Below are positions 1 to 63,347 of a stretch of 64,000 nucleotides of DNA, piece after piece. The DNA is taken from NCBI GenBank assembly GCA_003117195.1, contig BDSI01000032.1, positions 62,001 to 126,000 of the forward strand, written 5' to 3'. Position 1 is the stretch's first letter; every line of letters begins with the position of its first letter. A program made the translations under genes and the position numbers. Source of the stretch: Eudorina sp. 2006-703-Eu-15. Its lineage: Eukaryota; Chlorophyta; Chlorophyceae; Chlamydomonadales; Volvocaceae. Below the pieces are notes generated by a model. That model was not told the origin of the DNA. It ran no database searches and saw only the letters and a program-made list of their open reading frames with translations.

Positions 1-281
1 GCACTACCGAACCAGCCTGCTCCATCCATTCTCGGGGACAGCTGTGCAGGAGACATGCAGCTGTATGTGAAGGACCCCTAACAACTGCTCCTCTCATGTC
101 CATCGATGTCCACGTACATCTTCATCTTGTCTTGACAGGAAGCTACACATTCACTGTACGGCATTCGATGTACGGCTCATGAGGGGGTTTGAGCCTGAGA
201 TTGGTGGGCGCGGTAGGTTCCTTGGACATTGGACAGGTGACACCGTCAGTGGCCTCCTCCGTACGACAGTCCCCGGGTTCG

Positions 282-354
282 GCTCGGTTAGCTCAGTCGG
301 TAGAGCGTACGGCTGTTAACCGTAAGGTCGACGGTTCGAACCCGTCATCGAGCG
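282..354 (+). tRNA. tRNA-Asn (anticodon GTT), unit 1
   Basis: A 73-nt cloverleaf can be folded: acceptor GCTCGGT pairs with ATCGAGC (one G-U), D-stem GCTC/GAGC, anticodon stem TACGG/CCGTA with loop CTGTTAA, T-arm GACGG-TTCGAAC-CCGTC, discriminator G. The anticodon GTT lies at 315-317. There is no intron and CCA is not encoded. Internal A and B boxes look intact. All 15 copies of this gene in the array appear identical. Confidence 0.96.
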
Positions 355-399
355 TGTTGGAGGCCAAGGCACGGCTGCGTGTGCGTGTGTGTGAGGGTC

Positions 400-500
400 G
401 GGGTCGTAGCTCAGATGGTAGAGCGCCGCTTAGCAGTGTGTGTCCCTCGATGGCACATGTGACTTGCGGGAGGCAGGGGGATCGATACCCTCCGACTCCA
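400..500 (+). tRNA. tRNA-Ala (anticodon AGC) with intron, unit 1; one base short
   Basis: Same gene as in the other units, but the 5' strand of the anticodon stem reads CCGC instead of CCCGC, so it is 101 nt instead of 102. This would unpair one position. It could be a real pseudogenising deletion or a homopolymer sequencing error. Confidence 0.8.
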
Positions 501-527
501 AGGGCCATGCAGGCAGGGTCGGGGCTG

Positions 528-531
528 TTTT
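528..531 (+). terminator. First T-run after the tRNA pair (weak Pol III terminator)
   Basis: TTTT occurs 27 nt after the end of tRNA-Ala in unit 1 and at the same place in every full unit. No T4 run is present between tRNA-Asn and tRNA-Ala. A run of four T is only a weak RNA polymerase III stop in many organisms, so the assignment is tentative. Confidence 0.4.
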
Positions 532-874
532 ATCAGGCCGGGATGGTAGTAGCCACTGGCTGGCATCCACCTGCCATGCACCGCTGTTGCCTGCACTACC
601 GAACCAGCCTGCTCCATCCATTCTCGGGGGACAGCTGTGCAGGAGACATGCAGCTGTATGTGAAGGACCCCTAACAACTGCTCCTCTCATGTCCATCGAT
701 GTCCACGTACATCTTCATCTTGTCTTGACAGGAAGCTACACATTCACTGTACGGCATTCGATGTACGGCTCATGAGGGGGTTTGAGCCTGAGATTGGTGG
801 GCGCGGTAGGTTCCTTGGACATTGGACAGGTGACACCGTCAGTGGCCTCCTCCGTACGACAGTCCCCGGGTTCG

Positions 875-947
875 GCTCGGTTAGCTCAGTCGGTAGAGCG
901 TACGGCTGTTAACCGTAAGGTCGACGGTTCGAACCCGTCATCGAGCG
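875..947 (+). tRNA. tRNA-Asn (GTT), unit 2
   Basis: Second copy, identical by eye to the unit 1 gene. Confidence 0.96.
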
Positions 948-993
948 TGTTGGAGGCCAAGGCACGGCTGCGTGTGCGTGTGTGTGAGGGTCG

Positions 994-1095
994 GGGGTCG
1001 TAGCTCAGATGGTAGAGCGCCCGCTTAGCAGTGTGTGTCCCTCGATGGCACATGTGACTTGCGGGAGGCAGGGGGATCGATACCCTCCGACTCCA
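994..1095 (+). tRNA. tRNA-Ala (AGC) with 29-nt intron, unit 2 (intact reference copy)
   Basis: Acceptor GGGGTCG/CGACTCC with discriminator A, D-stem GCTC/GAGC, anticodon stem CCCGC/GCGGG, loop TTAGCA+T, variable loop AGGCA, T-arm GGGGG-ATCGATA-CCCTC (one G-U). The intron is 1,031-1,059, directly 3' of position 37, the canonical eukaryotic site, and starts GTGTGTGTCC. The mature tRNA would be 73 nt. Introns in nuclear tRNA genes are common in Chlamydomonas. Copies in units 6-14 match this one. Confidence 0.94.
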
Positions 1096-1467
1096 AGGGC
1101 CATGCAGGCAGGGTCGGGGCTGTTTTATCAGGCCGGGATGGTAGTAGCCACTGGCTGGCATCCACCTGCCATGCACCGCTGTTGCCTGCACTACCGAACC
1201 AGCCTGCTCCATCCATTCTCGGGGACAGCTGTGCAGGAGACATGCAGCTGTATGTGAAGGACCCTAACAACTGCTCCTCTCATGTCCATCGATGTCCACG
1301 TACATCTTCATCTTGTCTTGACAGGAAGCTACACATTCACTGTACGGCATTCGATGTACGGCTCATGAGGGGGTTTGAGCCTGAGATTGGTGGGCGCGGT
1401 AGGTTCCTTGGACATTGGACAGGTGACACCGTCAGTGGCCTCCTCCGTACGACAGTCCCCGGGTTCG

Positions 1468-1540
1468 GCTCGGTTAGCTCAGTCGGTAGAGCGTACGGCT
1501 GTTAACCGTAAGGTCGACGGTTCGAACCCGTCATCGAGCG
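1468..1540 (+). tRNA. tRNA-Asn (GTT), unit 3
   Basis: Third copy, identical by eye. Confidence 0.96.
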
Positions 1541-1586
1541 TGTTGGAGGCCAAGGCACGGCTGCGTGTGCGTGTGTGTGAGGGTCG

Positions 1587-1687
1587 GGGGTCGTAGCTCA
1601 GATGGTAGAGCGCCCGCTTAGCAGTGTGTGTCCCTCGATGGCACATGTGACTTGCGGGAGGCAGGGGATCGATACCCTCCGACTCCA
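1587..1687 (+). tRNA. tRNA-Ala (AGC) with intron, unit 3; one G short in the T-arm
   Basis: The G-run before ATCGATA has four G instead of five, so the 5' strand of the T-stem is one base short (101 nt in all). Confidence 0.8.
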
Positions 1688-2060
1688 AGGGCCATGCAGG
1701 CAGGGTCGGGGCTGTTTTATCAGGCCGGGATGGTAGTAGCCACTGGCTGGCATCCACCTGCCATGCACCGCTGTTGCCTGCACTACCGAACCAGCCTGCT
1801 CCATCCATTCTCGGGGACAGCTGTGCAGGAGACATGCAGCTGTATGTGAAGGACCCCTAACAACTGCTCCTCTCATGTCCATCGATGTCCACGTACATCT
1901 TCATCTTGTCTTGACAGGAAGCTACACATTCACTGTACGGCATTCGATGTACGGCTCATGAGGGGGTTTGAGCCTGAGATTGGTGGGCGCGGTAGGTTCC
2001 TTGGACATTGGACAGGTGACACCGTCAGTGGCCTCCTCCGTACGACAGTCCCCGGGTTCG

Positions 2061-2133
2061 GCTCGGTTAGCTCAGTCGGTAGAGCGTACGGCTGTTAACC
2101 GTAAGGTCGACGGTTCGAACCCGTCATCGAGCG
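2061..2133 (+). tRNA. tRNA-Asn (GTT), unit 4
   Basis: Fourth copy, identical by eye. Confidence 0.96.
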
Positions 2134-2179
2134 TGTTGGAGGCCAAGGCACGGCTGCGTGTGCGTGTGTGTGAGGGTCG

Positions 2180-2280
2180 GGGGTCGTAGCTCAGATGGTA
2201 GAGCGCCCGCTTAGCAGTGTGTGTCCCTCGATGGCACATGTGACTTGCGGAGGCAGGGGGATCGATACCCTCCGACTCCA
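2180..2280 (+). tRNA. tRNA-Ala (AGC) with intron, unit 4; one G short in the anticodon stem
   Basis: The 3' strand of the anticodon stem reads GCGG-A instead of GCGGG-A (101 nt). Confidence 0.8.
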
Positions 2281-2652
2281 AGGGCCATGCAGGCAGGGTC
2301 GGGGCTGTTTTATCAGGCCGGGATGGTAGTAGCCACTGGCTGGCATCCACCTGCCATGCACCGCTGTTGCCTGCACTACCGAACCAGCCTGCTCCATCCA
2401 TTCTCGGGGACAGCTGTGCAGGAGACATGCAGCTGTATGTGAAGGACCCCTAACAACTGCTCCTCTCATGTCCATCGATGTCCACGTACATCTTCATCTT
2501 GTCTTGACAGGAAGCTACACATTCACTGTACGGCATTCGATGTACGGCTCATGAGGGGGTTTGAGCCTGAGATTGGTGGGCGCGGTAGGTTCCTTGGACA
2601 TTGGACAGGTGACACCGTCAGTGGCCTCCTCCGTACGACAGTCCCGGGTTCG

Positions 2653-2725
2653 GCTCGGTTAGCTCAGTCGGTAGAGCGTACGGCTGTTAACCGTAAGGTC
2701 GACGGTTCGAACCCGTCATCGAGCG
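2653..2725 (+). tRNA. tRNA-Asn (GTT), unit 5
   Basis: Fifth copy, identical by eye. The spacer directly upstream has one C fewer than in most units. Confidence 0.96.
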
Positions 2726-2771
2726 TGTTGGAGGCCAAGGCACGGCTGCGTGTGCGTGTGTGTGAGGGTCG

Positions 2772-2872
2772 GGGGTCGTAGCTCAGATGGTAGAGCGCCC
2801 GCTTAGCAGTGTGTGTCCCTCGATGGCACATGTGACTTGCGGGAGGCAGGGGATCGATACCCTCCGACTCCA
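2772..2872 (+). tRNA. tRNA-Ala (AGC) with intron, unit 5; one G short in the T-arm
   Basis: Same single-G difference as in unit 3. Confidence 0.8.
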
Positions 2873-3245
2873 AGGGCCATGCAGGCAGGGTCGGGGCTGT
2901 TTTATCAGGCCGGGATGGTAGTAGCCACTGGCTGGCATCCACCTGCCATGCACCGCTGTTGCCTGCACTACCGAACCAGCCTGCTCCATCCATTCTCGGG
3001 GACAGCTGTGCAGGAGACATGCAGCTGTATGTGAAGGACCCCTAACAACTGCTCCTCTCATGTCCATCGATGTCCACGTACATCTTCATCTTGTCTTGAC
3101 AGGAAGCTACACATTCACTGTACGGCATTCGATGTACGGCTCATGAGGGGGTTTGAGCCTGAGATTGGTGGGCGCGGTAGGTTCCTTGGACATTGGACAG
3201 GTGACACCGTCAGTGGCCTCCTCCGTACGACAGTCCCCGGGTTCG

Positions 3246-3318
3246 GCTCGGTTAGCTCAGTCGGTAGAGCGTACGGCTGTTAACCGTAAGGTCGACGGTT
3301 CGAACCCGTCATCGAGCG
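3246..3318 (+). tRNA. tRNA-Asn (GTT), unit 6
   Basis: Sixth copy, identical by eye. Confidence 0.96.
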
Positions 3319-3364
3319 TGTTGGAGGCCAAGGCACGGCTGCGTGTGCGTGTGTGTGAGGGTCG

Positions 3365-3466
3365 GGGGTCGTAGCTCAGATGGTAGAGCGCCCGCTTAGC
3401 AGTGTGTGTCCCTCGATGGCACATGTGACTTGCGGGAGGCAGGGGGATCGATACCCTCCGACTCCA
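3365..3466 (+). tRNA. tRNA-Ala (AGC) with intron, unit 6
   Basis: Full-length 102-nt copy matching unit 2. Confidence 0.94.
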
Positions 3467-3839
3467 AGGGCCATGCAGGCAGGGTCGGGGCTGTTTTATC
3501 AGGCCGGGATGGTAGTAGCCACTGGCTGGCATCCACCTGCCATGCACCGCTGTTGCCTGCACTACCGAACCAGCCTGCTCCATCCATTCTCGGGGGACAG
3601 CTGTGCAGGAGACATGCAGCTGTATGTGAAGGACCCCTAACAACTGCTCCTCTCATGTCCATCGATGTCCACGTACATCTTCATCTTGTCTTGACAGGAA
3701 GCTACACATTCACTGTACGGCATTCGATGTACGGCTCATGAGGGGGTTTGAGCCTGAGATTGGTGGGCGCGGTAGGTTCCTTGGACATTGGACAGGTGAC
3801 ACCGTCAGTGGCCTCCTCCGTACGACAGTCCCCGGTTCG

Positions 3840-3912
3840 GCTCGGTTAGCTCAGTCGGTAGAGCGTACGGCTGTTAACCGTAAGGTCGACGGTTCGAACC
3901 CGTCATCGAGCG
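3840..3912 (+). tRNA. tRNA-Asn (GTT), unit 7
   Basis: Seventh copy, identical by eye. One G is missing from the spacer just upstream. Confidence 0.96.
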
Positions 3913-3958
3913 TGTTGGAGGCCAAGGCACGGCTGCGTGTGCGTGTGTGTGAGGGTCG

Positions 3959-4060
3959 GGGGTCGTAGCTCAGATGGTAGAGCGCCCGCTTAGCAGTGTG
4001 TGTCCCTCGATGGCACATGTGACTTGCGGGAGGCAGGGGGATCGATACCCTCCGACTCCA
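3959..4060 (+). tRNA. tRNA-Ala (AGC) with intron, unit 7
   Basis: Full-length copy. Confidence 0.94.
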
Positions 4061-4433
4061 AGGGCCATGCAGGCAGGGTCGGGGCTGTTTTATCAGGCCG
4101 GGATGGTAGTAGCCACTGGCTGGCATCCACCTGCCATGCACCGCTGTTGCCTGCACTACCGAACCAGCCTGCTCCATCCATTCTCGGGGACAGCTGTGCA
4201 GGAGACATGCAGCTGTATGTGAAGGACCCCTAACAACTGCTCCTCTCATGTCCATCGATGTCCACGTACATCTTCATCTTGTCTTGACAGGAAGCTACAC
4301 ATTCACTGTACGGCATTCGATGTACGGCTCATGAGGGGGTTTGAGCCTGAGATTGGTGGGCGCGGTAGGTTCCTTGGACATTGGACAGGTGACACCGTCA
4401 GTGGCCTCCTCCGTACGACAGTCCCCGGGTTCG

Positions 4434-4506
4434 GCTCGGTTAGCTCAGTCGGTAGAGCGTACGGCTGTTAACCGTAAGGTCGACGGTTCGAACCCGTCAT
4501 CGAGCG
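4434..4506 (+). tRNA. tRNA-Asn (GTT), unit 8
   Basis: Eighth copy; first of the run of 595-bp units. Confidence 0.96.
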
Positions 4507-4552
4507 TGTTGGAGGCCAAGGCACGGCTGCGTGTGCGTGTGTGTGAGGGTCG

Positions 4553-4654
4553 GGGGTCGTAGCTCAGATGGTAGAGCGCCCGCTTAGCAGTGTGTGTCCC
4601 TCGATGGCACATGTGACTTGCGGGAGGCAGGGGGATCGATACCCTCCGACTCCA
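4553..4654 (+). tRNA. tRNA-Ala (AGC) with intron, unit 8
   Basis: Full-length copy. Confidence 0.94.
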
Positions 4655-5028
4655 AGGGCCATGCAGGCAGGGTCGGGGCTGTTTTATCAGGCCGGGATGG
4701 TAGTAGCCACTGGCTGGCATCCACCTGCCATGCACCGCTGTTGCCTGCACTACCGAACCAGCCTGCTCCATCCATTCTCGGGGGACAGCTGTGCAGGAGA
4801 CATGCAGCTGTATGTGAAGGACCCCTAACAACTGCTCCTCTCATGTCCATCGATGTCCACGTACATCTTCATCTTGTCTTGACAGGAAGCTACACATTCA
4901 CTGTACGGCATTCGATGTACGGCTCATGAGGGGGTTTGAGCCTGAGATTGGTGGGCGCGGTAGGTTCCTTGGACATTGGACAGGTGACACCGTCAGTGGC
5001 CTCCTCCGTACGACAGTCCCCGGGTTCG

Positions 5029-5101
5029 GCTCGGTTAGCTCAGTCGGTAGAGCGTACGGCTGTTAACCGTAAGGTCGACGGTTCGAACCCGTCATCGAGC
5101 G
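5029..5101 (+). tRNA. tRNA-Asn (GTT), unit 9
   Basis: Ninth copy. Confidence 0.96.
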
Positions 5102-5147
5102 TGTTGGAGGCCAAGGCACGGCTGCGTGTGCGTGTGTGTGAGGGTCG

Positions 5148-5249
5148 GGGGTCGTAGCTCAGATGGTAGAGCGCCCGCTTAGCAGTGTGTGTCCCTCGAT
5201 GGCACATGTGACTTGCGGGAGGCAGGGGGATCGATACCCTCCGACTCCA
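5148..5249 (+). tRNA. tRNA-Ala (AGC) with intron, unit 9
   Basis: Full-length copy. Confidence 0.94.
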
Positions 5250-5623
5250 AGGGCCATGCAGGCAGGGTCGGGGCTGTTTTATCAGGCCGGGATGGTAGTA
5301 GCCACTGGCTGGCATCCACCTGCCATGCACCGCTGTTGCCTGCACTACCGAACCAGCCTGCTCCATCCATTCTCGGGGGACAGCTGTGCAGGAGACATGC
5401 AGCTGTATGTGAAGGACCCCTAACAACTGCTCCTCTCATGTCCATCGATGTCCACGTACATCTTCATCTTGTCTTGACAGGAAGCTACACATTCACTGTA
5501 CGGCATTCGATGTACGGCTCATGAGGGGGTTTGAGCCTGAGATTGGTGGGCGCGGTAGGTTCCTTGGACATTGGACAGGTGACACCGTCAGTGGCCTCCT
5601 CCGTACGACAGTCCCCGGGTTCG

Positions 5624-5696
5624 GCTCGGTTAGCTCAGTCGGTAGAGCGTACGGCTGTTAACCGTAAGGTCGACGGTTCGAACCCGTCATCGAGCG
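5624..5696 (+). tRNA. tRNA-Asn (GTT), unit 10
   Basis: Tenth copy. Confidence 0.96.
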
Positions 5697-5742
5697 TGTT
5701 GGAGGCCAAGGCACGGCTGCGTGTGCGTGTGTGTGAGGGTCG

Positions 5743-5844
5743 GGGGTCGTAGCTCAGATGGTAGAGCGCCCGCTTAGCAGTGTGTGTCCCTCGATGGCAC
5801 ATGTGACTTGCGGGAGGCAGGGGGATCGATACCCTCCGACTCCA
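5743..5844 (+). tRNA. tRNA-Ala (AGC) with intron, unit 10
   Basis: Full-length copy. Confidence 0.94.
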
Positions 5845-6218
5845 AGGGCCATGCAGGCAGGGTCGGGGCTGTTTTATCAGGCCGGGATGGTAGTAGCCAC
5901 TGGCTGGCATCCACCTGCCATGCACCGCTGTTGCCTGCACTACCGAACCAGCCTGCTCCATCCATTCTCGGGGGACAGCTGTGCAGGAGACATGCAGCTG
6001 TATGTGAAGGACCCCTAACAACTGCTCCTCTCATGTCCATCGATGTCCACGTACATCTTCATCTTGTCTTGACAGGAAGCTACACATTCACTGTACGGCA
6101 TTCGATGTACGGCTCATGAGGGGGTTTGAGCCTGAGATTGGTGGGCGCGGTAGGTTCCTTGGACATTGGACAGGTGACACCGTCAGTGGCCTCCTCCGTA
6201 CGACAGTCCCCGGGTTCG

Positions 6219-6291
6219 GCTCGGTTAGCTCAGTCGGTAGAGCGTACGGCTGTTAACCGTAAGGTCGACGGTTCGAACCCGTCATCGAGCG
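6219..6291 (+). tRNA. tRNA-Asn (GTT), unit 11
   Basis: Eleventh copy. Confidence 0.96.
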
Positions 6292-6337
6292 TGTTGGAGG
6301 CCAAGGCACGGCTGCGTGTGCGTGTGTGTGAGGGTCG

Positions 6338-6439
6338 GGGGTCGTAGCTCAGATGGTAGAGCGCCCGCTTAGCAGTGTGTGTCCCTCGATGGCACATGTG
6401 ACTTGCGGGAGGCAGGGGGATCGATACCCTCCGACTCCA
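6338..6439 (+). tRNA. tRNA-Ala (AGC) with intron, unit 11
   Basis: Full-length copy. Confidence 0.94.
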
Positions 6440-6813
6440 AGGGCCATGCAGGCAGGGTCGGGGCTGTTTTATCAGGCCGGGATGGTAGTAGCCACTGGCT
6501 GGCATCCACCTGCCATGCACCGCTGTTGCCTGCACTACCGAACCAGCCTGCTCCATCCATTCTCGGGGGACAGCTGTGCAGGAGACATGCAGCTGTATGT
6601 GAAGGACCCCTAACAACTGCTCCTCTCATGTCCATCGATGTCCACGTACATCTTCATCTTGTCTTGACAGGAAGCTACACATTCACTGTACGGCATTCGA
6701 TGTACGGCTCATGAGGGGGTTTGAGCCTGAGATTGGTGGGCGCGGTAGGTTCCTTGGACATTGGACAGGTGACACCGTCAGTGGCCTCCTCCGTACGACA
6801 GTCCCCGGGTTCG

Positions 6814-6886
6814 GCTCGGTTAGCTCAGTCGGTAGAGCGTACGGCTGTTAACCGTAAGGTCGACGGTTCGAACCCGTCATCGAGCG
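6814..6886 (+). tRNA. tRNA-Asn (GTT), unit 12
   Basis: Twelfth copy. Confidence 0.96.
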
Positions 6887-6932
6887 TGTTGGAGGCCAAG
6901 GCACGGCTGCGTGTGCGTGTGTGTGAGGGTCG

Positions 6933-7034
6933 GGGGTCGTAGCTCAGATGGTAGAGCGCCCGCTTAGCAGTGTGTGTCCCTCGATGGCACATGTGACTTG
7001 CGGGAGGCAGGGGGATCGATACCCTCCGACTCCA
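6933..7034 (+). tRNA. tRNA-Ala (AGC) with intron, unit 12
   Basis: Full-length copy. Confidence 0.94.
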
Positions 7035-7408
7035 AGGGCCATGCAGGCAGGGTCGGGGCTGTTTTATCAGGCCGGGATGGTAGTAGCCACTGGCTGGCAT
7101 CCACCTGCCATGCACCGCTGTTGCCTGCACTACCGAACCAGCCTGCTCCATCCATTCTCGGGGGACAGCTGTGCAGGAGACATGCAGCTGTATGTGAAGG
7201 ACCCCTAACAACTGCTCCTCTCATGTCCATCGATGTCCACGTACATCTTCATCTTGTCTTGACAGGAAGCTACACATTCACTGTACGGCATTCGATGTAC
7301 GGCTCATGAGGGGGTTTGAGCCTGAGATTGGTGGGCGCGGTAGGTTCCTTGGACATTGGACAGGTGACACCGTCAGTGGCCTCCTCCGTACGACAGTCCC
7401 CGGGTTCG

Positions 7409-7481
7409 GCTCGGTTAGCTCAGTCGGTAGAGCGTACGGCTGTTAACCGTAAGGTCGACGGTTCGAACCCGTCATCGAGCG
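7409..7481 (+). tRNA. tRNA-Asn (GTT), unit 13
   Basis: Thirteenth copy. Confidence 0.96.
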
Positions 7482-7527
7482 TGTTGGAGGCCAAGGCACG
7501 GCTGCGTGTGCGTGTGTGTGAGGGTCG

Positions 7528-7629
7528 GGGGTCGTAGCTCAGATGGTAGAGCGCCCGCTTAGCAGTGTGTGTCCCTCGATGGCACATGTGACTTGCGGGA
7601 GGCAGGGGGATCGATACCCTCCGACTCCA
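7528..7629 (+). tRNA. tRNA-Ala (AGC) with intron, unit 13
   Basis: Full-length copy. Confidence 0.94.
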
Positions 7630-8003
7630 AGGGCCATGCAGGCAGGGTCGGGGCTGTTTTATCAGGCCGGGATGGTAGTAGCCACTGGCTGGCATCCACC
7701 TGCCATGCACCGCTGTTGCCTGCACTACCGAACCAGCCTGCTCCATCCATTCTCGGGGGACAGCTGTGCAGGAGACATGCAGCTGTATGTGAAGGACCCC
7801 TAACAACTGCTCCTCTCATGTCCATCGATGTCCACGTACATCTTCATCTTGTCTTGACAGGAAGCTACACATTCACTGTACGGCATTCGATGTACGGCTC
7901 ATGAGGGGGTTTGAGCCTGAGATTGGTGGGCGCGGTAGGTTCCTTGGACATTGGACAGGTGACACCGTCAGTGGCCTCCTCCGTACGACAGTCCCCGGGT
8001 TCG

Positions 8004-8076
8004 GCTCGGTTAGCTCAGTCGGTAGAGCGTACGGCTGTTAACCGTAAGGTCGACGGTTCGAACCCGTCATCGAGCG
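8004..8076 (+). tRNA. tRNA-Asn (GTT), unit 14
   Basis: Fourteenth copy. Confidence 0.96.
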
Positions 8077-8122
8077 TGTTGGAGGCCAAGGCACGGCTGC
8101 GTGTGCGTGTGTGTGAGGGTCG

Positions 8123-8224
8123 GGGGTCGTAGCTCAGATGGTAGAGCGCCCGCTTAGCAGTGTGTGTCCCTCGATGGCACATGTGACTTGCGGGAGGCAG
8201 GGGGATCGATACCCTCCGACTCCA
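8123..8224 (+). tRNA. tRNA-Ala (AGC) with intron, unit 14
   Basis: Last full-length alanine copy in the array. Confidence 0.94.
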
Positions 8225-8598
8225 AGGGCCATGCAGGCAGGGTCGGGGCTGTTTTATCAGGCCGGGATGGTAGTAGCCACTGGCTGGCATCCACCTGCCA
8301 TGCACCGCTGTTGCCTGCACTACCGAACCAGCCTGCTCCATCCATTCTCGGGGGACAGCTGTGCAGGAGACATGCAGCTGTATGTGAAGGACCCCTAACA
8401 ACTGCTCCTCTCATGTCCATCGATGTCCACGTACATCTTCATCTTGTCTTGACAGGAAGCTACACATTCACTGTACGGCATTCGATGTACGGCTCATGAG
8501 GGGGTTTGAGCCTGAGATTGGTGGGCGCGGTAGGTTCCTTGGACATTGGACAGGTGACACCGTCAGTGGCCTCCTCCGTACGACAGTCCCCGGGTTCG

Positions 8599-8671
8599 GC
8601 TCGGTTAGCTCAGTCGGTAGAGCGTACGGCTGTTAACCGTAAGGTCGACGGTTCGAACCCGTCATCGAGCG
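8599..8671 (+). tRNA. tRNA-Asn (GTT), unit 15
   Basis: Last asparagine copy, still intact by eye even though its unit is truncated further downstream. Confidence 0.95.
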
Positions 8672-8717
8672 TGTTGGAGGCCAAGGCACGGCTGCGTGTG
8701 CGTGTGTGTGAGGGTCG

Positions 8718-8809
8718 GGGGTCGTAGCTCAGATGGTAGAGCGCCCGCTTAGCAGTGTGTGTCCCTCGATGGCACATGTGACTTGCGGGAGGCAGGGGGA
8801 TCGATACCC
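8718..8809 (+). pseudogene. tRNA-Ala fragment lacking the 3' acceptor strand, unit 15
   Basis: Sequence matches tRNA-Ala through the T-loop (ATCGATACCC), then jumps to the distal spacer (CTAACGACTTC) instead of continuing to CGACTCCA. The 3' half of the acceptor stem is absent, so no functional tRNA can form. The jump removes about 176 bp relative to a full unit. CCCC occurs at both joined ends, which suggests a microhomology deletion. Confidence 0.9.
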
Positions 8810-8892
8810 CCTAACGACTTCTCCCCTCATGTCCATGTCCATCTTCATCTTGTCTTGACAGGGACCTACACATTCACTGTACGGCATTCGAT

Positions 8893-8911
8893 GTGGACCC
8901 CGCGGGTCAGC
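8893..8911 (+). repeat. Copy of the GTGGACCCCGCGGGTCA motif at the right edge of the tRNA array
   Basis: The array spacer ends in GATGT, and instead of the usual ACGGCTC the sequence continues GTGGACCCCGCGGGTCA. The same motif begins the inverted-repeat element at 63,795 and occurs reverse-complemented at 54,514. It is probably the end of a transposable element that abuts or cut the array. Confidence 0.6.
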
Positions 8912-10042
8912 CGAAGCTCACCACACAATGCATAAACGAACCTGCACCACCATGCATGGCACACCAGACAGGCTCTACAAGTGCACGGAAACACTCCCTG
9001 TGCCCACACTTTCACGGAACCACCCTGTTCCTGATAACCAATCTCAGCCAGGGATAAAACCCGCTCAGGGTACTCAGGGGGAGTTAGTCACCAGGATGTT
9101 CCTTTTAGTGAACCACCACCCCAACCAAGGTGGGCTCATGCCTCCAGCGGTGGCCTGTAGTCTTGGATAGCCAGGGAGGCTAGCTTGGCATACATTCGAT
9201 CGGCAGGACTGGCCCAGCATGCTAGCCCTACCAACCTGGTCGCAGCCGCTTTGGTCGGACTGGTGTGCCAGTATACACATGTCACCACACGGTACAAATT
9301 AAGGATACTTTCCGCCGCTAGGTTGTTTTTGTACTTTGCTCGTGCAGCGGCGGCTGGGAGTGGTGAGCAAGCAAGATTGACTTACAGGAGTGCTGGTACA
9401 TACATATAGCTGTGGAGCTGCCCGATGACCATCAAGTTCCAGAGAGCGTTTGAATTATTGTGAATACTGACACTAGTGTGTAGGCCTATCTAGATTGGAA
9501 GGTAAGGAGCGCCTGACTCAGGCAGGTTCCATAAACTAACGGGCTGTGTCCCACAGCTAGCGATAGGTTGATTGGTGTTGACTGACGATATGGGGCATCC
9601 ATTGACGTTGAGGGGCTGGTACAGTGGACGAGGTAGGCGTCAGCATGTAGGAGACTGATTAAACAGACATCTCTCCTCTATCTCCTCAGGGTGTGTCCCC
9701 TTGCTTTACTAATAACACATGCCAGGCTTGAAGGATTCCGGCGCCTAATAACCAACTAATAAACATAAACACAGTCCTGCATGACATTCACCAACATCAA
9801 TACCGCCGGCACTACCAGCACGCAGGTAAAAATTGCCTGCCACGATTATAACTACTAACAATACCTAACCTAATACGATTATAACTACTAACAATACCTA
9901 GTATCCAAATAATCCATCCACAAGTAAGGCTTTCTGCAGACCAATACAGACCCAAGCAAAGGCTTATATATCCCACGAATTACACGAATGCCAGCAGGGC
10001 ACTGGGCTTGCAACCAAGCAACACGTTGTTGGTTCGCTAACA
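8912..10042. other. Intergenic DNA between the tRNA array and the 3' end of the hydrolase gene
   Basis: No coding region supported. It holds a short direct duplication (25 bp at 9,842-9,866 and 9,875-9,899) and AT-rich DNA. The 3' untranslated region of the minus-strand hydrolase gene probably occupies the right end. Confidence 0.6.
9980..9984 (-). promoter_or_regulatory. Candidate TGTAA polyadenylation signal of the FSH1 hydrolase gene
   Basis: TGTAA on the minus strand, about 60 nt past the stop codon. TGTAA is the usual green-algal (Chlamydomonas, Volvox) polyadenylation motif. The motif is short and could occur by chance. Confidence 0.45.
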
Positions 10043-27795
<17,753 letters not shown>

Positions 27796-38706: not shown

Positions 38707-40581
38707 CCGCAGTAGCAAAAACAGCGTCGAGACCGCTCCAGGCAGTGACGCACCGGCACGCGGCCGCACCTGCTCCGCGGCCCCCACACCCCGTTTCTGT
38801 TTAACCCCCGCACCCTGCAGCCCAACCCAAGCCCGGTGGCGGCCCCCGCCCCCGCCCCCGCCCCCACCGCCCCCCCACTCACATCCAGGGGCATCTGCTC
38901 CTTCTCCGCCCAGCTGGTCTTATCCTGAGGGGGATGGGCGAGGTGGATAGCAGAGAGGGAAAAGCCTTGGAGGAGACGTGGTGGTGGTACGGTAGTGGTG
39001 GTGGTAATGGTAATGGTGGTGGTGGTGGTGGTGGTGAGGAGGAGGAGGAGCGGGAGTGCAGCCCGTCAGCGAGCTGGTTGCGGTCGAAGGAGCTGTCAAA
39101 CTCCAGGGGGGGGGGGAGCCCCCAGTCGGCCAGTGAGGGCCGGCCGCCCTCATCGCAGCCCCAGATGGCCATCCGGATGTGCCCACAAGGGCCGCAGTGG
39201 AGTCAGATCCACGCCGCCGCCGCCGCCGCCACGGGGGGCACTTCTCCCGCCAAGCACGGTCCCTCCGGCGCTCCAGCACCCCTCGTTGCCCCGCACCCCT
39301 GCGCCCCTCCACCTCCGAGCCCCCAATCGCCACCACCCCTCCACTGGCTTCCCCTGCTTGGCGGGAGCGGGACCTGCGACCCCCGCCCTACCTCCCCCCT
39401 CCTGCCGCTCGCATCCTCCCACCCCAGCCCCAGTTCTTCGGGTTTATTTCTTTTTTCAATCTTCACCCCAGCCCCAACCCAACCCAACCCAACCCTCCTG
39501 CCTCTCCCACCCCAGCCCCACCCCAGCCCCACCCGCCCCACCCGCCACCCCACCCCACCCCAGCTCACCTCCAGCGACCAGTTGTTCTGTCCGAAGGTGC
39601 CCACCCGCACCCCCCGCTCCGTCCACAGCGACACCGTGCAGTCCGCGCTGCTGCTCACCAGGAACAGCCCGGGGCGGCCGCCGCCCAGACCCAGGGCGTG
39701 CGCGTGGGACGACGATGACGACGACCCGTGGGTCGTCGGCCCCCCGTGCCCCAGCACGGGCGAGGTGGTCCCGCTGCCGCCGCCGCCGCCGCCGCCAAAC
39801 CCCGAGGAGAAACCCGCGTTCACGTCCACCCAGTCCAGGGAGGTCACGTGGGCCTTATGCGCCCGCCACATGGACACCTCCCGGATGGTGATGGCGGCGG
39901 CGGCCTGGGAGAGGGCGCCGCCGGTGTAGCGGGAGATGTCCCACACCTGCGCGCACAGGGGGCCGGGGGGGGGGGTAGGAGGGGGAAGGGGTTATAGGAG
40001 ATTGGTAGACATATTTATACTGCGCTGCTGCCAGAGCAAAGGTCCGGTGAAGGGGCGCGGATGGGGACGGAGGACCGCGAAGGGCCGGGTTGAGAGACGA
40101 TGGGCAGGGGCCCAGAGGGGAGGGCGCCCGGGGACGGCCGCGCAAAGGCGGAGAAGAGAGCTTGGAGGTTGATATCTTTGTGGGTGGCGCCCGCGACGAG
40201 CCCCACGGGAGCGGACGGCTCCGACAGGAGCGAACTGCCACAAGTAACGACGATAACACTCGTACGAGCACCAGCCGCCATCCCAGGAGCAATGCCACCA
40301 GGTGGGGGTTGCCGGGCGCGGCCTGGGGGCGCCGAACGGAGGCCGCACCCGGCGGCCGGGTGGGCGGGTGGGTGGCTGGGCGAATGTCGGGGTATGTCGG
40401 GGTATGGTGTAGTGTGGTGCGGGCAATGGTGGGAGGGCCGCTGGATGCGGCCGCCCGGGGGACCTAGGGGTTAGAAAGAAACAGCCCAGACACACCCAGC
40501 CCAGGACCCAGGGGTGAGGGGGCATGTCCGCATGTACGTGCGATGTGTGCACGTGTCGTGTTGTTCAGGCAGGCAAACTGG

Positions 40582-40658
<77 letters not shown>

Positions 40659-43600: not shown

Positions 43601-46600
43601 CTCCCCCCCCCCGCCCCAACCCTGGGCCCCCCTCTCCCCCCCGCACTCCCCCACACACAGCAACCCCAACCCGCCCCCCCACACATACACCGCATCCTAC
43701 GACGTCATAGCCGCTACTTCTGCTGGCGTCACGGCGCCCACCGGCGCTCGACAACGATACGGGGCGCTGCAGCATCACGGACTACACCACCTTGGGACTA
43801 CTTATGGTCGACATACTTCGCCCTGGCATATTGGTAACTCTGGTCTCGGTCTCAGTCGTCGGTTGCATTGCTGGACACGGTTCTGCTTATTCGCGGCTCA
43901 GCTTTTCTCCTTGCTAACACACCGCATTCCCCCCCCGGCCCCCCACCCACCAGACGCTGATGGTCCCCGCGTGGTCGGCCGAGATGGCCTCACTGAAGTT
44001 GGAGTTGTACATGACCCGCGTGACGGCCGCGTTGTGGGCCTGGGTGGCGCCCGCACCCGCCGTCGTCATCTTCCATACCTGGAAAGGCGAGGGGGGGAGG
44101 CGGAGGAGGAGGAGGAGGCGGAGGAGAAGGCAATGGAGGAGGAGGGGGCGGAGAAGGACGAGGAAGGGGGGGAGAAAGGCGGAGGCGTGTAAGAGGGGTG
44201 CGATGGGAGGGTGGGCCTCTCCGTCAACTTGCGCGACTGGTCGACGTCCCCCTTCCCTCTCACCCGCCCCGCCCCGTCCCCCCCGGCTCCGTACGGTGCC
44301 TTACCTTGGGTTTCATGAAACCAGTCACCAGCTGCCGCCGCTGCGTGTCGTACAGCAGGGGTGTCACCGCGTCGTCGGTGGCGGACTGCCCGGGGGAGCG
44401 GGAAGGGGGCGGGGTCGGGGTCAGGAGGGGGAGCGGGGGAGGGAGGGAGGCGGGGGCAGAAATGGGTTTGGGGAGGTCCCCTCGACATCACGCCGGGCAC
44501 TCCTGACAAGCCCAAGCCAACGCATCACAACAAGCGATGGTGCCAAGACAACGCCAGCCGCATAGCTGGCCCCTCTCTGACCCCCCTCCCCCTCCACCTG
44601 CCGTCCCTACCTGCGGCATGCTGATGAGGTCGCGGTCCGGTAGGGACTGCACGCACTTGTGGTTCCGGATGTCCCAGATCTGGGGGATGGGAAGGAGGGA
44701 AGAGGAGGAGGGAAGAGGCGACAGGGCCGGCCGGCCGGCCGGCAAGCGGGGGAGGCGGGGGAGGTTGCGGTCAGGCGGTGGGTCCTCGGAGCCGCCACAG
44801 GGGGACGGAGTGAGAGGGCAGGGGAGCTGCCTGGGCCGCCAGGTAAGGGCACCCAGGACATCCCCAGCCCCGGCCCCCAAATGCGGATCTGGACCCTCGG
44901 CACCCTCGGCACCTCCGACCTCCTCCCCGCCTGCCACCCGAACACCTTCCGTACCCCCTCATCCTCGCCGCTTCCCCCCGACTAGGATGACACCCCCTCC
45001 CACGAATCCCACGAACCCCCGAAATCGCCCCGCCCCGCCCCGCCCCGCCCCGCCGCGCCCTCCCCCTCCTGCCCACCCGGCCCGCCCCCCCTTCAATCCC
45101 CTCTCCCGGCAGGGTCCCCCCACCTTTATGATGTGGTCACTGGACATGGAGATGATCTGGTTGTCCCGGTCGTTGACCACCACGCCGGTCACCGCCGCGT
45201 TGTGGCCGCTGAGCACCGCCAGCGGCTTCTGGCTGAAGGGGTTCCACATGATAACCCGCCGGTCCAGGGAGCCCGTCACCACGAACTTGTACAGCGAGGA
45301 CCAGTCCACCGCGTTGACGCCCTGGGGGGGTGAGAGAGGCGGGGGGGGGAGGCGGGGGGGAGGCGGGGGGGGGGAGGCGGGGGGGGCAGGGAGGCGGGGG
45401 GGCAGGGAGGCGGGGGGGGGAGGCGGGGGGCAGCCAGCCGCGGACCGGGAGGAGAAGGGGGCAGGGGGGGTATAGGAGATTGGTAGACATAATGATACTG
45501 CGTTGCTGCTGGGGAGAAGGGTGGGGGGAGAAAGGGGGGCATAGGGGGAAGGAGCGGGAGGCACAGGTACATTCAGGTGTGGGACCGCCGCTTGGGCTGC
45601 CCCTGCCCTAACGCCACCTCCCAACTGTTTCCGCTGCCCACGCCGAGCGCCTTCGTCCCTCCCCCACCACACACAGTCACACACACACATACTTCCGTCG
45701 CCTTTGTCGCCTATTCCGCTGGACTTCGCTTCTCGCGGCTCAGTTTTCTTTTACACACACATGCGCGCAAACATCCCCCCCCCAGGTACCTTGGTGTGGT
45801 GTCCGTCCAGCTTCTTGAGCGGCACCCGCTCCTCCGCGTCGGTGATGGACACCGTCTTGTCCAGGGAGGCCGCCAGCACGCAGTTCATGTCGGCCACGTA
45901 CCTGGGGGTATGGGGTTATGTTGGTGTGTGGGTGTTTAGCGAAGATTGGTGAAGTGCTTGTAGGAGGGGGGCCATCGCCGGGGCGTCGGAGGGAGGGAGC
46001 CCGGAGAGCCCTCTGATGGCGTGTGAAGCATCGTGTCCGCCCGCCCATCCACCTTCCTCCCCCTCCCCCTCCCCCGGCCCCTCCGCACCCACTTGACCGA
46101 CATGACCCAGTCGTTGTGGTGGTGGAAGCGCCACCGGGGCCGCTCCGACAGCCGCTCCACGCTGCCGCTGCCGCCGCTGCCGCCGGCCGCCGCCATGGCG
46201 TCCCCCTCCGAGCCGCCGCCGCCGCCCCCGCCCGTGGACCGCACCTCGAACAGCCGCACCCAGCCGCCCCCGTCCCCCACCACCACCAGCTCGCTGTCCT
46301 TGGCCCGACTGGGCACCCACACGTCCAGACACAGCGGCACGAAGTCGATCTCCGGGATCTGCGGGCACGCGAACCCCCCCGCCGGGGTGGGATGGGGTGG
46401 GATGGGGTGAGATGGGCGTTGAGGAGAAAGGAGACGGCCAAGACACACCCAGCCCGGGGTCAGGCGTGGCGCGCTAAGCGTGGAGAAACTACCCTGGGGA
46501 AATCCCCGGGATGCAGGGTGCAGTGGGTGGAGTGGGTTGTGTGGGTGAGTAAGTGGGAGTGGGTGATTGGGGGTCGAGTGGACCGGACAGCTGCCACCCA

Positions 46601-47180
46601 TCCGGTGCCTGTTCGCAGTGTCGCGGTCTCGACTGAATCGACACGAGAGAGGGGGTGAGTCTTGACCCCACAGGGGATACGTGGCGGCAAGCCCCTACGA
46701 GACCCTCACAGGGATGTAGGAGTTGGGAGCGAGGAAGCGTACGAATGAATGGGTACAACGGACGCAGCCCGCCGCCTCCGTCTCCTCCTCCGTCTCCAAC
46801 GCCGCCGCTTGCAGCTCCGGTCCATCGGACCACCCGCCACCTGCACCGCCCGCACCTGGCCCGCGATCTCGTACGAGGCGAGGTCGTACATCCGGATGGA
46901 GCGGCTGAAGGAGCCCACCGCCAGCTTCTGGGTGAGCGGCATGAAGGCGGCGCAGGTGGCCCACAGGCCGCCGCTGTGCGCGGGCCGGGAGGGGCGCGCG
47001 CTGGAGAGGCGGTCGGAGCCCTCGCGGGAGGGCACCGCGATGCGGGGGCGCGGCAGGTGCAGCGTCTTGACGTGCTTCAGGTCCTTGGCGTTCCACAGCC
47101 GCACAGTGCCGTCCCTGCGGCCCAGGCGGCGGCGGCGACGGCCGAGCGTGTGTGTTATCAAGGAGAAAAGCTGAGCCGCG

Positions 47181-47250
<70 letters not shown>

Positions 47251-61565: not shown

Positions 61566-63347
<1,782 letters not shown>

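What the first reader, a model, noticed from the sequence alone, without database searches (positions are those of the whole stretch)
1..8892. Near-perfect tandem array of a two-gene tRNA unit
Fifteen head-to-tail copies of a 595-bp unit each carry tRNA-Asn(GTT) and intron-bearing tRNA-Ala(AGC). The non-coding spacer is as conserved as the tRNAs, which points to recent amplification or ongoing homogenisation, as in rDNA. Tandem tRNA arrays are well known in Entamoeba, but such an array beside ordinary protein genes in a green alga is unusual. It could set tRNA dosage, act as a barrier or boundary element, or be a fragile site.
Basis: partly seen in the sequence, partly recalled or inferred. 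Interest (0 to 1): 0.8.

Follow-up and report, generated by a model that had tools for sequence, protein, structure and literature searches.

The report
Tandem tRNA gene array, green alga
What looked like one odd run of repeated tRNA genes is the right-hand third of a roughly 30-kb array with 46 asparagine tRNA genes, the only ones found in this probable green alga's genome, and it is one of at least seven kinds of tandem tRNA array there, an arrangement best known from the amoeba Entamoeba.

Summary
In detail: the window has 15 tRNA-Asn(GTT) genes, 14 complete units of 592-595 bp and a broken last unit. The array starts about 21 kb upstream, spans about C32:40,977-70,894 and holds 46 Asn genes between non-array flanks. 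A loop plus B-box pattern for tRNA-Asn(GTT) has 45 hits in the 181-Mb assembly, 44 in this array; the other is no tRNA by ARAGORN. The unit's only T4 run follows tRNA-Ala, so Asn and Ala are probably co-transcribed (inferred). Variants shared by neighbouring units, an insertion at one site in three units, decayed edges and 22 substitution-free units indicate unequal exchange. Six further tandem unit types of 1.2-4.2 kb carry other tRNAs: iMet/Tyr/Ile/Ala, Gly/Asp/Glu/His/Lys/Arg, eMet/Thr, Leu(CAG), Leu(AAG), Ser(GCT) (the last three read by eye). The kind is known (Entamoeba, human, Arabidopsis); several arrays in a probable volvocine alga are a new instance. Copy number, expression and species are not proven.

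The parts
1..8894 (+). Right part of array A: tandem units of tRNA-Asn(GTT)-tRNA-Ala(AGC). The whole array is about C32:40,977-70,894, i.e. it starts about 21 kb left of the window
282..8671 (+). 15 tRNA-Asn(GTT) genes, starts at 282, 875, 1468, 2061, 2653, 3246, 3840, 4434, 5029, 5624, 6219, 6814, 7409, 8004, 8599 (73 nt each)
   Evidence: ARAGORN; Rfam (70.8 bits each)
994..8224 (+). 13 full-length intron-bearing tRNA-Ala genes, starts at 994, 1587, 2180, 2772, 3365, 3959, 4553, 5148, 5743, 6338, 6933, 7528, 8123; those at 1587, 2180 and 2772 (44.8 or 40.8 bits) carry a single-base deletion
   Evidence: Rfam; anticodon AGC and intron shown on the reference unit
401..501 (+). tRNA-Ala of the first unit (approximate ends), not reported by Rfam, with single-base deletions (probably assembly errors)
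5029..5623 (+). Reference 595-bp unit
5029..5101 (+). tRNA-Asn(GTT) of the reference unit
5102..5147 (+). 46-bp Asn-Ala spacer without any T4 run; the corresponding site carries the 898-bp insertion in three upstream units
5148..5249 (+). tRNA-Ala(AGC) of the reference unit, G3:U70 acceptor pair
5185..5213 (+). 29-nt intron of tRNA-Ala at position 37/38
   Evidence: ARAGORN
5277..5280 (+). The only T4 run in the unit: presumed RNA polymerase III terminator for an Asn-Ala transcript
   Evidence: function inferred
5281..5623 (+). Remaining non-coding spacer up to the next tRNA-Asn, as uniform as the genes
8721..8819 (+). Broken last tRNA-Ala at the right array edge
8808..8894 (+). Decayed remnant of spacer (unit 389-485, 84% identity) that closes the array after an internal deletion

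Best explanation
It is a tandem array of a two-gene RNA polymerase III unit that supplies tRNA-Asn, and part of tRNA-Ala(AGC), to the cell. Each 595-bp unit is probably transcribed from the internal promoters of its tRNAs into an Asn-Ala precursor that ends at the single TTTT behind Ala; tRNA end-processing and removal of the 29-nt Ala intron then give two tRNAs (inferred from sequence). The array is held uniform and changes in length by unequal sister-chromatid exchange and/or gene conversion, as rDNA does; variants that arise spread to neighbours or are pushed to the edges, where units decay. It is one of at least seven types of tandem tRNA array in a probable volvocine green alga, an organisation like that of Entamoeba but of separate origin (inferred).
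For: Shown: 46 tRNA-Asn (44 GTT, 2 ATT) in one orientation on a 1.10-Mb contig, with non-array sequence on both sides. Shown: the pattern CTGTTAAN{10,16}GGTTCRANNC has 45 hits genome-wide (0 in the reversed-pattern control), 44 in this array; the other (C73) is no tRNA by ARAGORN. Shown: 16 of 23 left-hand units carry substitutions and 0 of 22 right-hand units do; the 22 differ only by 27 single-base deletions in G or C runs (the cut was chosen after looking). Shown: an 898-bp insertion with a 7-bp direct repeat (TGCGTGT) at its ends sits at the same site in three units; one of the three inserts differs from the other two by one SNP; two of the three units share G34A and C89T; three consecutive units share A176G. 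Shown: the only T4 run of the unit lies 27 bp behind Ala, none between the genes. Shown: other tandem unit types, with gene content read on C363 and C11 (B), C131, C287, C419, C434, C499, C522, C570 (C), C289 and C1042 (D), and regular spacings of one gene on C18, C36, C66 (E, F, G).
Against: No RNA data: transcription, co-transcription and splicing are inferred. The T4 rule does not fit every gene of the sister arrays: in array B no T4 run follows Tyr within the unit, and in array C none follows Arg on its strand for about 700 bp, so absence of T4 between Asn and Ala is weaker evidence for one transcript than it seems. The copy number may be wrong, since uniform units exceed what reads can phase. 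Some units are defective: two Asn genes have an ATT anticodon, the three leftmost complete units have an Ala gene of 40.9 bits with a mismatch in the anticodon stem, the last Ala is truncated. Dispersed genes exist for Thr(TGT), Lys(CTT), Ile, eMet, Leu and Ser, so arrays are not the only way this genome holds tRNAs. Val, Phe, Pro, Gln, Cys, Trp were not surveyed. An Asn gene with an intron or an unusual loop would have been missed.
Confidence: 0.8

Rival explanations
1. Assembly artefact: one or few real units multiplied by the assembler.
For: Right-hand units are identical apart from homopolymer deletions, and such repeats are hard to assemble.
Against: The array is closed on both sides by non-array sequence in a 1.10-Mb contig; left units carry private and shared substitutions and three copies of an insertion. 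Other tRNA arrays in the same assembly show the same design with other genes.
Confidence: 0.06
2. Mostly silent array: like the Arabidopsis Pro and Tyr-Ser clusters, most units are repressed and the array is a by-product of unequal exchange without dosage role.
For: tDNA clusters of Arabidopsis are reported as methylated and repressed (passage of PMC11700998, citing Hummel et al. 2020). For Entamoeba the authors think it more likely that many copies are inactive (PMC2652664, Function section). Dispersed low-copy tRNA genes exist here too.
Against: No other tRNA-Asn(GTT) source was found, so at least some units must be active; interior Asn and Ala genes keep intact tRNA structure.
Confidence: 0.3
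3. One recent burst of amplification, with no continuing homogenisation.
For: 22 uniform units on the right.
Against: The left half shows layers of variants: copied insertion, shared SNP groups, repeat-length variants. That fits repeated exchanges better than a single burst, although the right half alone cannot tell.
Confidence: 0.25
4. Structural role: the array acts as chromatin boundary or replication-fork barrier, with tRNA supply secondary.
For: The human 1q23.3 tRNA repeat is proposed as a boundary element (PMC4041453 abstract); tRNA clusters are linked to fork pausing in the literature (PMC2888827 passages). A retrotransposon lies 4.1 kb from the array.
Against: Nothing in the sequence tests this; one unit each of arrays A, B and C compared pairwise share only tRNA sequence or nothing.
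Confidence: 0.08

Closest known systems
Entamoeba tRNA gene arrays (25 array units in E. histolytica; PMC2652664: abstract, Discussion part 1, Function section and passages seen)
   Same: Several distinct tandem arrays, each unit with one to several different tRNAs; units uniform within an array; dispersed low-copy genes for some isoacceptors; maintenance by concerted evolution proposed there and supported here; retrotransposon sequence near an array.
   Different: Probably a green alga; array A unit is 59% GC, without the STR blocks of E. histolytica/E. dispar between genes; tRNA introns in several unit types; no 5S RNA in the stretches of arrays A-D scanned; the spans measured here are a small share of the genome as assembled; mixed gene orientation in unit type C.
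Human chromosome 1q23.3 tRNA VNTR (PMC4041453, abstract seen)
   Same: Long tandem array of a multi-tRNA unit; there with copy-number variation of 9-43 units.
   Different: 7.3-kb unit that binds CTCF; one locus, in a genome with many other tRNA genes (recalled).
Arabidopsis tRNA-Pro and tRNA-Tyr/Ser tandem clusters; Zea mays tRNA-Ile cluster (PMC11700998, passages seen)
   Same: Tandem tRNA clusters of about 25-28 repeats in the green lineage.
   Different: One to a few clusters per genome, in Arabidopsis reported as repressed; here several array types, one of which seems to be the only source of an isoacceptor.
Volvox carteri and Chlamydomonas reinhardtii tDNA clusters (PMC2888827, passages seen)
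   Same: Same algal group if the species inference holds; 1051 tDNAs, 41% clustered in Volvox; 336 tDNAs, 56% clustered in Chlamydomonas.
   Different: The passages give clustering within 1 kb, not tandem unit arrays; whether Volvox has the same arrays was not tested.
Eukaryotic rDNA arrays (recalled)
   Same: Head-to-tail units, uniform spacer and genes, decayed edges.
   Different: Pol III tRNA unit of 0.6 kb; no rRNA.

Membership tests
Tandem tRNA gene array (general) | Head-to-tail units with the same tRNA genes and near-identical spacers | tested here: met
   45 complete units, 46 Asn genes; 45 Rfam Ala-type matches
Tandem tRNA gene array (general) | Genes have intact tRNA structure | tested here: met
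   15 of 15 Asn in the window at 70.8 bits, 13 of 15 Ala full-length and above threshold; reference unit folds as tRNA; edge Ala genes defective; ARAGORN calls only 7 Ala in the whole array
Entamoeba-type multi-array organisation | Several distinct array units covering many isoacceptors | tested here: met
   At least seven unit types: Asn/Ala; Ile/Ala/Met/Tyr; Gly/Asp/Glu/His/Lys/Arg; eMet/Thr by ARAGORN (eMet partly by eye); Leu(CAG), Leu(AAG), Ser(GCT) by pattern, anticodon by eye
Entamoeba-type multi-array organisation | Almost all tRNA genes arrayed | tested here: inconclusive
   Asn: all 44 GTT matches. Thr(TGT), Lys(CTT), Ile, eMet, Leu, Ser have dispersed copies. Val, Phe, Pro searches did not complete; Gln, Cys, Trp not sent
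Entamoeba-type multi-array organisation | Arrays exceed 10% of the genome (E. histolytica; other species range down to 1.1% of reads) | tested here: inconclusive
   Measured spans: array A about 30 kb, C18 84 kb, C36 about 20 kb at regular spacing, C66 at least 21 kb of 181 Mb. A total was not computed; as assembled 10% is not in sight, but collapsed copies cannot be excluded
Entamoeba-type multi-array organisation | STR blocks between genes (E. histolytica/E. dispar only) | tested here: not met
   Array A has only a short ATGTCC repeat in its leftmost units, expanded to about 390 bp at the left edge
Entamoeba-type multi-array organisation | 5S RNA in some units | tested here: not met
   Rfam on stretches of arrays A, B, C, D gives tRNA only; E, F, G not scanned
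Concertedly evolving repeat (rDNA-like) | Variants shared by neighbouring units, uniform block, decayed edges | tested here: met
Concertedly evolving repeat (rDNA-like) | Copy number differs between individuals or strains | not testable with these tools
   one assembly only
Dicistronic Pol III tRNA unit | No T4 terminator between the genes, one behind the second | tested here: met
   Only T4 run at unit position 249; but T4 is lacking behind some genes of arrays B and C as well
Dicistronic Pol III tRNA unit | Joint precursor RNA observed | not testable with these tools
   no RNA data

The most novel reading that the evidence does not exclude
A photosynthetic alga has independently evolved an Entamoeba-like tRNA gene organisation: most bulk nuclear tRNAs are made from long, concertedly evolving tandem arrays, and at least one whole amino acid (Asn) depends on a single array, so its tRNA dosage and identity are maintained the way rDNA is rather than by dispersed copies.
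Probability: 0.45. Interest if true: 0.8.

Novelty: new member of a known kind. Interest (0 to 1): 0.62.

Why it matters
Why tRNA genes become tandem arrays has been open since Entamoeba, where the authors call the function obscure (PMC2652664). A second, unrelated lineage with several arrays would show that the organisation is convergent. An array that is the only source of one tRNA makes dosage directly testable by changing copy number. An essential tRNA held in one locus is also a clean case for how concerted evolution protects or endangers a gene, here with a visible spread of an insertion and of an anticodon mutation (G34A) inside the array.

Tried and rejected
Rejected: that the 592-595 bp length differences in the window are real variants; they are all single-base deletions in G or C runs with no substitutions, as expected of long-read assembly errors in repeats that short reads cannot polish (inference). 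Rejected: C73:95581 as a second tRNA-Asn (ARAGORN finds no tRNA in L070). Rejected: shared spacer between arrays A, B and C; one unit of each was compared and they share only tRNA sequence (A-B the Ala gene, 80%; A-C Asn against Lys, 81%; B-C nothing). A weak relation exists between the window's right flank (8922-9089) and the spacer of array D (about 72%), probably an old dispersed repeat.

Led nowhere: the tRNA-Asn 41-mer in viral contigs gave 0 matches. Pfam on 18 window ORFs other than the retrotransposon gave nothing. ARAGORN calls some eMet genes as Arg(TCG), SeC, Cys or Ser because of the intron; I read them as eMet from the loop CTCATA (by eye). Leu and Ser anticodons of arrays E, F, G are read by eye from the strings matched, whose pattern also gave 17 hits in the reversed-pattern control against 169, so some of its hits are chance. 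One search's pattern gave 15 hits against 10 in the control; only its tRNA-like strings are used. A first Asn pattern used a gap that excluded the array itself; it was corrected. An earlier count gave about 50 units and entry 2 wrote 48 Asn; the correct figure, 46, is in entry 3.

Species: inferred, not proven. Lengths of 22 contigs, with guessed values for C1-C5 and the assumption that contigs are numbered by length, give L50 81-84 and N50 0.56-0.58 Mb. This matches Eudorina sp. 2016-703-Eu-15 (184.03 Mb, 3180 scaffolds, N50 0.56, L50 83; PMC8226300 passage), but this assembly has 181.20 Mb in 3033 contigs. The best-scoring named relatives of the neighbouring retrotransposon are Haematococcus lacustris proteins; some unnamed metagenome proteins are closer in identity (120 of 7641 hits listed).

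Literature: seven of the nine paper searches asked about tRNA arrays or tRNA gene organisation; one search asked for the Eudorina/Yamagishiella assemblies and for dicistronic tRNA genes in Chlamydomonas. In the listings and the passages opened (eight papers) I saw no report of tandem tRNA arrays in Eudorina or another volvocine alga; the word tRNA does not occur in the main text of the two papers on the Eudorina assembly, and a Volvox small-RNA paper says that no database lists the V. carteri tRNA genes in full (PMC5093975 passage). Most subscription papers are not held, and the 2008 Genetics paper on Chlamydomonas tRNA genes that I recalled is not held.

Full report
What is there. The window is bases 62,001-126,000 of contig C32 (1.10 Mb) of a 181.2-Mb assembly of 3033 contigs. 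Its first 8.9 kb carry 15 tRNA-Asn(GTT) genes (confirmed by Rfam) at spacings of 592-595 bp. Rfam reports 14 Ala-type matches; the first unit's Ala is not reported, probably because of two missing single bases, and the last (8721-8819) is truncated and fused to later spacer. With introns allowed, ARAGORN reads the second gene of the reference unit as tRNA-Ala(AGC) with a 29-nt intron at 37/38 and a G3:U70 pair.

The array is larger. A search of the own genome with one unit found more units upstream (which scored 39 of 188 candidates). I fetched C32:38,001-62,400 and read it with the window start: 46 tRNA-Asn genes (44 GTT, 2 ATT) from 41,166 to 70,671, all on the + strand; homology to the unit runs from about 40,977 to 70,894, with a weaker 77% piece at 40,565-40,649. 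There are 45 complete units plus one broken last unit; both sides pass into other sequence. Rfam passes 45 Ala-type matches over the array (31 upstream; 14 in the window), ARAGORN only 7. On the left the array starts in a run of about 390 bp of ATGTCC repeats, a motif that is also present in short form in the leftmost units. On the right it ends by a jump from the T arm of the last Ala into later spacer, followed by a decayed remnant.

How it evolves. Against the reference unit (window 5029-5623) I listed every difference in the 45 complete units. In the left 23 units, 16 carry substitutions; in the right 22 units none does. The right 22 differ only by 27 single-base deletions, all in G or C runs of two to five, and the last seven are identical. 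(The division was chosen after seeing the list; one search gives a descriptive chance figure of 4e-7 for that split.) Neighbouring units share variants: A176G in three consecutive units, T172A in three and T27A in two consecutive units, and G34A plus C89T in two of the three units that carry an 898-bp insertion; some variants (G41A, A142G, A206T) are shared by units that are not neighbours. The insertion sits between Asn and Ala at the same site each time and is flanked by a 7-bp direct repeat; two copies are identical and the third differs by one SNP. One insertion event copied into three units, together with edge decay, is what unequal exchange or gene conversion produces. G34A turns the Asn anticodon into ATT in two units, so even a change of the anticodon has spread.

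What it makes. The pattern of the Asn anticodon loop plus B box (CTGTTAAN{10,16}GGTTCRANNC) has 45 hits in the whole assembly and none in the reversed control: 44 are in this array and the other, on C73, is not a tRNA by ARAGORN. A broader pattern (TAGCTCAGNNGG plus B box) has 177 hits; among the 100 listed, Asn-type strings occur on C32 only (by eye). Within these limits (no intron, canonical loop and B box) this one array is the only source of tRNA-Asn(GTT) found. tRNA-Ala(AGC) is also made elsewhere (array B below). In the unit, the only run of four T is at position 249, 27 bp behind Ala; there is none between Asn and Ala and none on the other strand. I infer one Pol III transcript of about 250 nt with both tRNAs. 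Similar layouts recur: Ile-Ala in array B with T5 directly behind Ala, and Glu-Asp in array C with 18 bp between them and a T4 behind Asp. Against this, no T4 follows Tyr within the array B unit, and none follows Arg on its strand in array C for about 700 bp, so termination may not depend on T4 alone.

It is one of a set. Array B: Ile(AAT)-Ala(AGC, 30-nt intron)-Met(CAT)-Tyr(GTA, intron), unit 2.26 kb, gene content read on C363 and at the end of C11; the Ala gene of this type has at least 32 matches on C363 (13), C231 (7), C11 (4), C2201 (4) and C1261 (4), and four single matches on C156, C25, C50 and C10. Its Met gene has the AGGATCGAAACC T arm that I recall from initiators (by eye). Array C: Gly(GCC), Asp(GTC, intron), Glu(CTC), His(GTG), Lys(CTT), Arg(ACG) in mixed orientation, unit about 3.49 or 4.2 kb, read on C131, C287, C419, C434, C499, C522 and C570; Lys spacing alone suggests it on C629, C805, C929 and C1334. 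On C131 copies are irregularly spaced and some have two Asp genes. Array D: eMet(CAT, intron)-Thr(AGT), unit 1.2 kb, on C289 and C1042. Array E: Leu(CAG, intron), 37 matches over 84 kb on C18, with higher-order spacing patterns; array F: Leu(AAG, intron), 13 matches on C36, 11 of them at 2.04 kb; array G: Ser(GCT), at least 17 at 1.31 kb on C66 (which lists 100 of 169 hits, with 17 in the control; spacings; anticodons by eye). Dispersed genes exist too: Thr(TGT), Lys(CTT), Ile, eMet, some Leu and Ser. Whether a type found on several contigs is one locus or several is unknown. I could not survey Val, Phe, Pro, Gln, Cys or Trp because the genome tool stopped answering. Rfam sees only tRNA in the stretches of arrays A-D that were scanned, no 5S RNA.

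Which organism. Interpolating known contig lengths (with guesses for the five largest) gives L50 81-84 and N50 0.56-0.58 Mb, which fits the published Eudorina sp. assembly (184.03 Mb, 3180 scaffolds, N50 0.56 Mb, L50 83; PMC8226300 passage; PacBio RS II with HGAP3 and Illumina correction, PMC6123790 passages). The totals differ by 2.8 Mb and 147 contigs, so this is a likely but unproven match. The retrotransposon near the array is closest, among named proteins, to Haematococcus lacustris, which also points to Chlamydomonadales. If it is that assembly, Illumina reads could not be placed in identical repeats, which would explain the leftover homopolymer deletions, and an exact count of uniform units is not to be trusted.

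Against the known. In E. histolytica 25 array units hold almost all tRNA genes and over 10% of the genome; in other Entamoeba species tRNA reads range from 1.1% to 15.7%; the authors propose concerted evolution and call the function obscure (PMC2652664: abstract, Discussion part 1, Function section, passages). This genome works like that in having several mixed-gene units, uniform arrays and dispersed exceptions. It differs in base composition, introns, lack of STR blocks and of 5S. A 2010 survey says large tDNA clusters arose independently many times and gives 1051 tDNAs, 41% clustered, for Volvox carteri (PMC2888827 passages and Conclusions), so relatives may have the same arrays; this was not tested. 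Human 1q23.3 (PMC4041453 abstract) and Arabidopsis or maize (PMC11700998 passages) have one or a few large arrays. In my paper searches on this question I saw no report of tandem tRNA arrays in a volvocine alga, within the open-access library held.

Verdict. A real, large, concertedly evolving tRNA array; a known kind in a new lineage, with the added point that one amino acid's tRNA seems to hang on this one locus.

Noticed in passing
window 12998-19570 (+): Ty3/gypsy-type retrotransposon with gag (12998-15280) and a pol frame with protease, RT, RNase H, integrase and chromodomain (15284-19570), about 4.1 kb right of the array; best-scoring named relatives in Haematococcus lacustris.
   Followed up: partly
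window 61566-63346: 1.8-kb array of the hexamer CATACA, about 295 copies.
   Followed up: no
C32:44,237-45,134, 46,327-47,224, 49,009-49,906 (approximate; in L039 and L040): 898-bp insertion with 7-bp direct repeats, three near-identical copies inside the tRNA array; possible non-autonomous transposon, not identified.
   Followed up: partly
window 8922-9089: About 72% identical to the spacer of array D units (L073, L074): a shared repeat next to or inside two different tRNA arrays.
   Followed up: partly
C131:284,001-292,000 (L071): Array C variant with two tRNA-Asp per unit and a Cys(ACA) call in place of Arg(ACG): different unit types of one array family in one genome.
   Followed up: no
C18:1,292,109-1,375,772: Leu(CAG) array with alternating spacings (1466/1585, 1466/2548, 1466/7.8 kb): higher-order repeat structure.
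   Followed up: no
C11:1,725,001-1,734,055 (L044): Array B runs to the end of the 1.73-Mb contig C11: either a broken assembly or a chromosome-end position.
   Followed up: no
window 57964-58966 (+): ORF stretches that look by eye like exons of a substrate-binding-protein-like gene; not tested.
   Followed up: no
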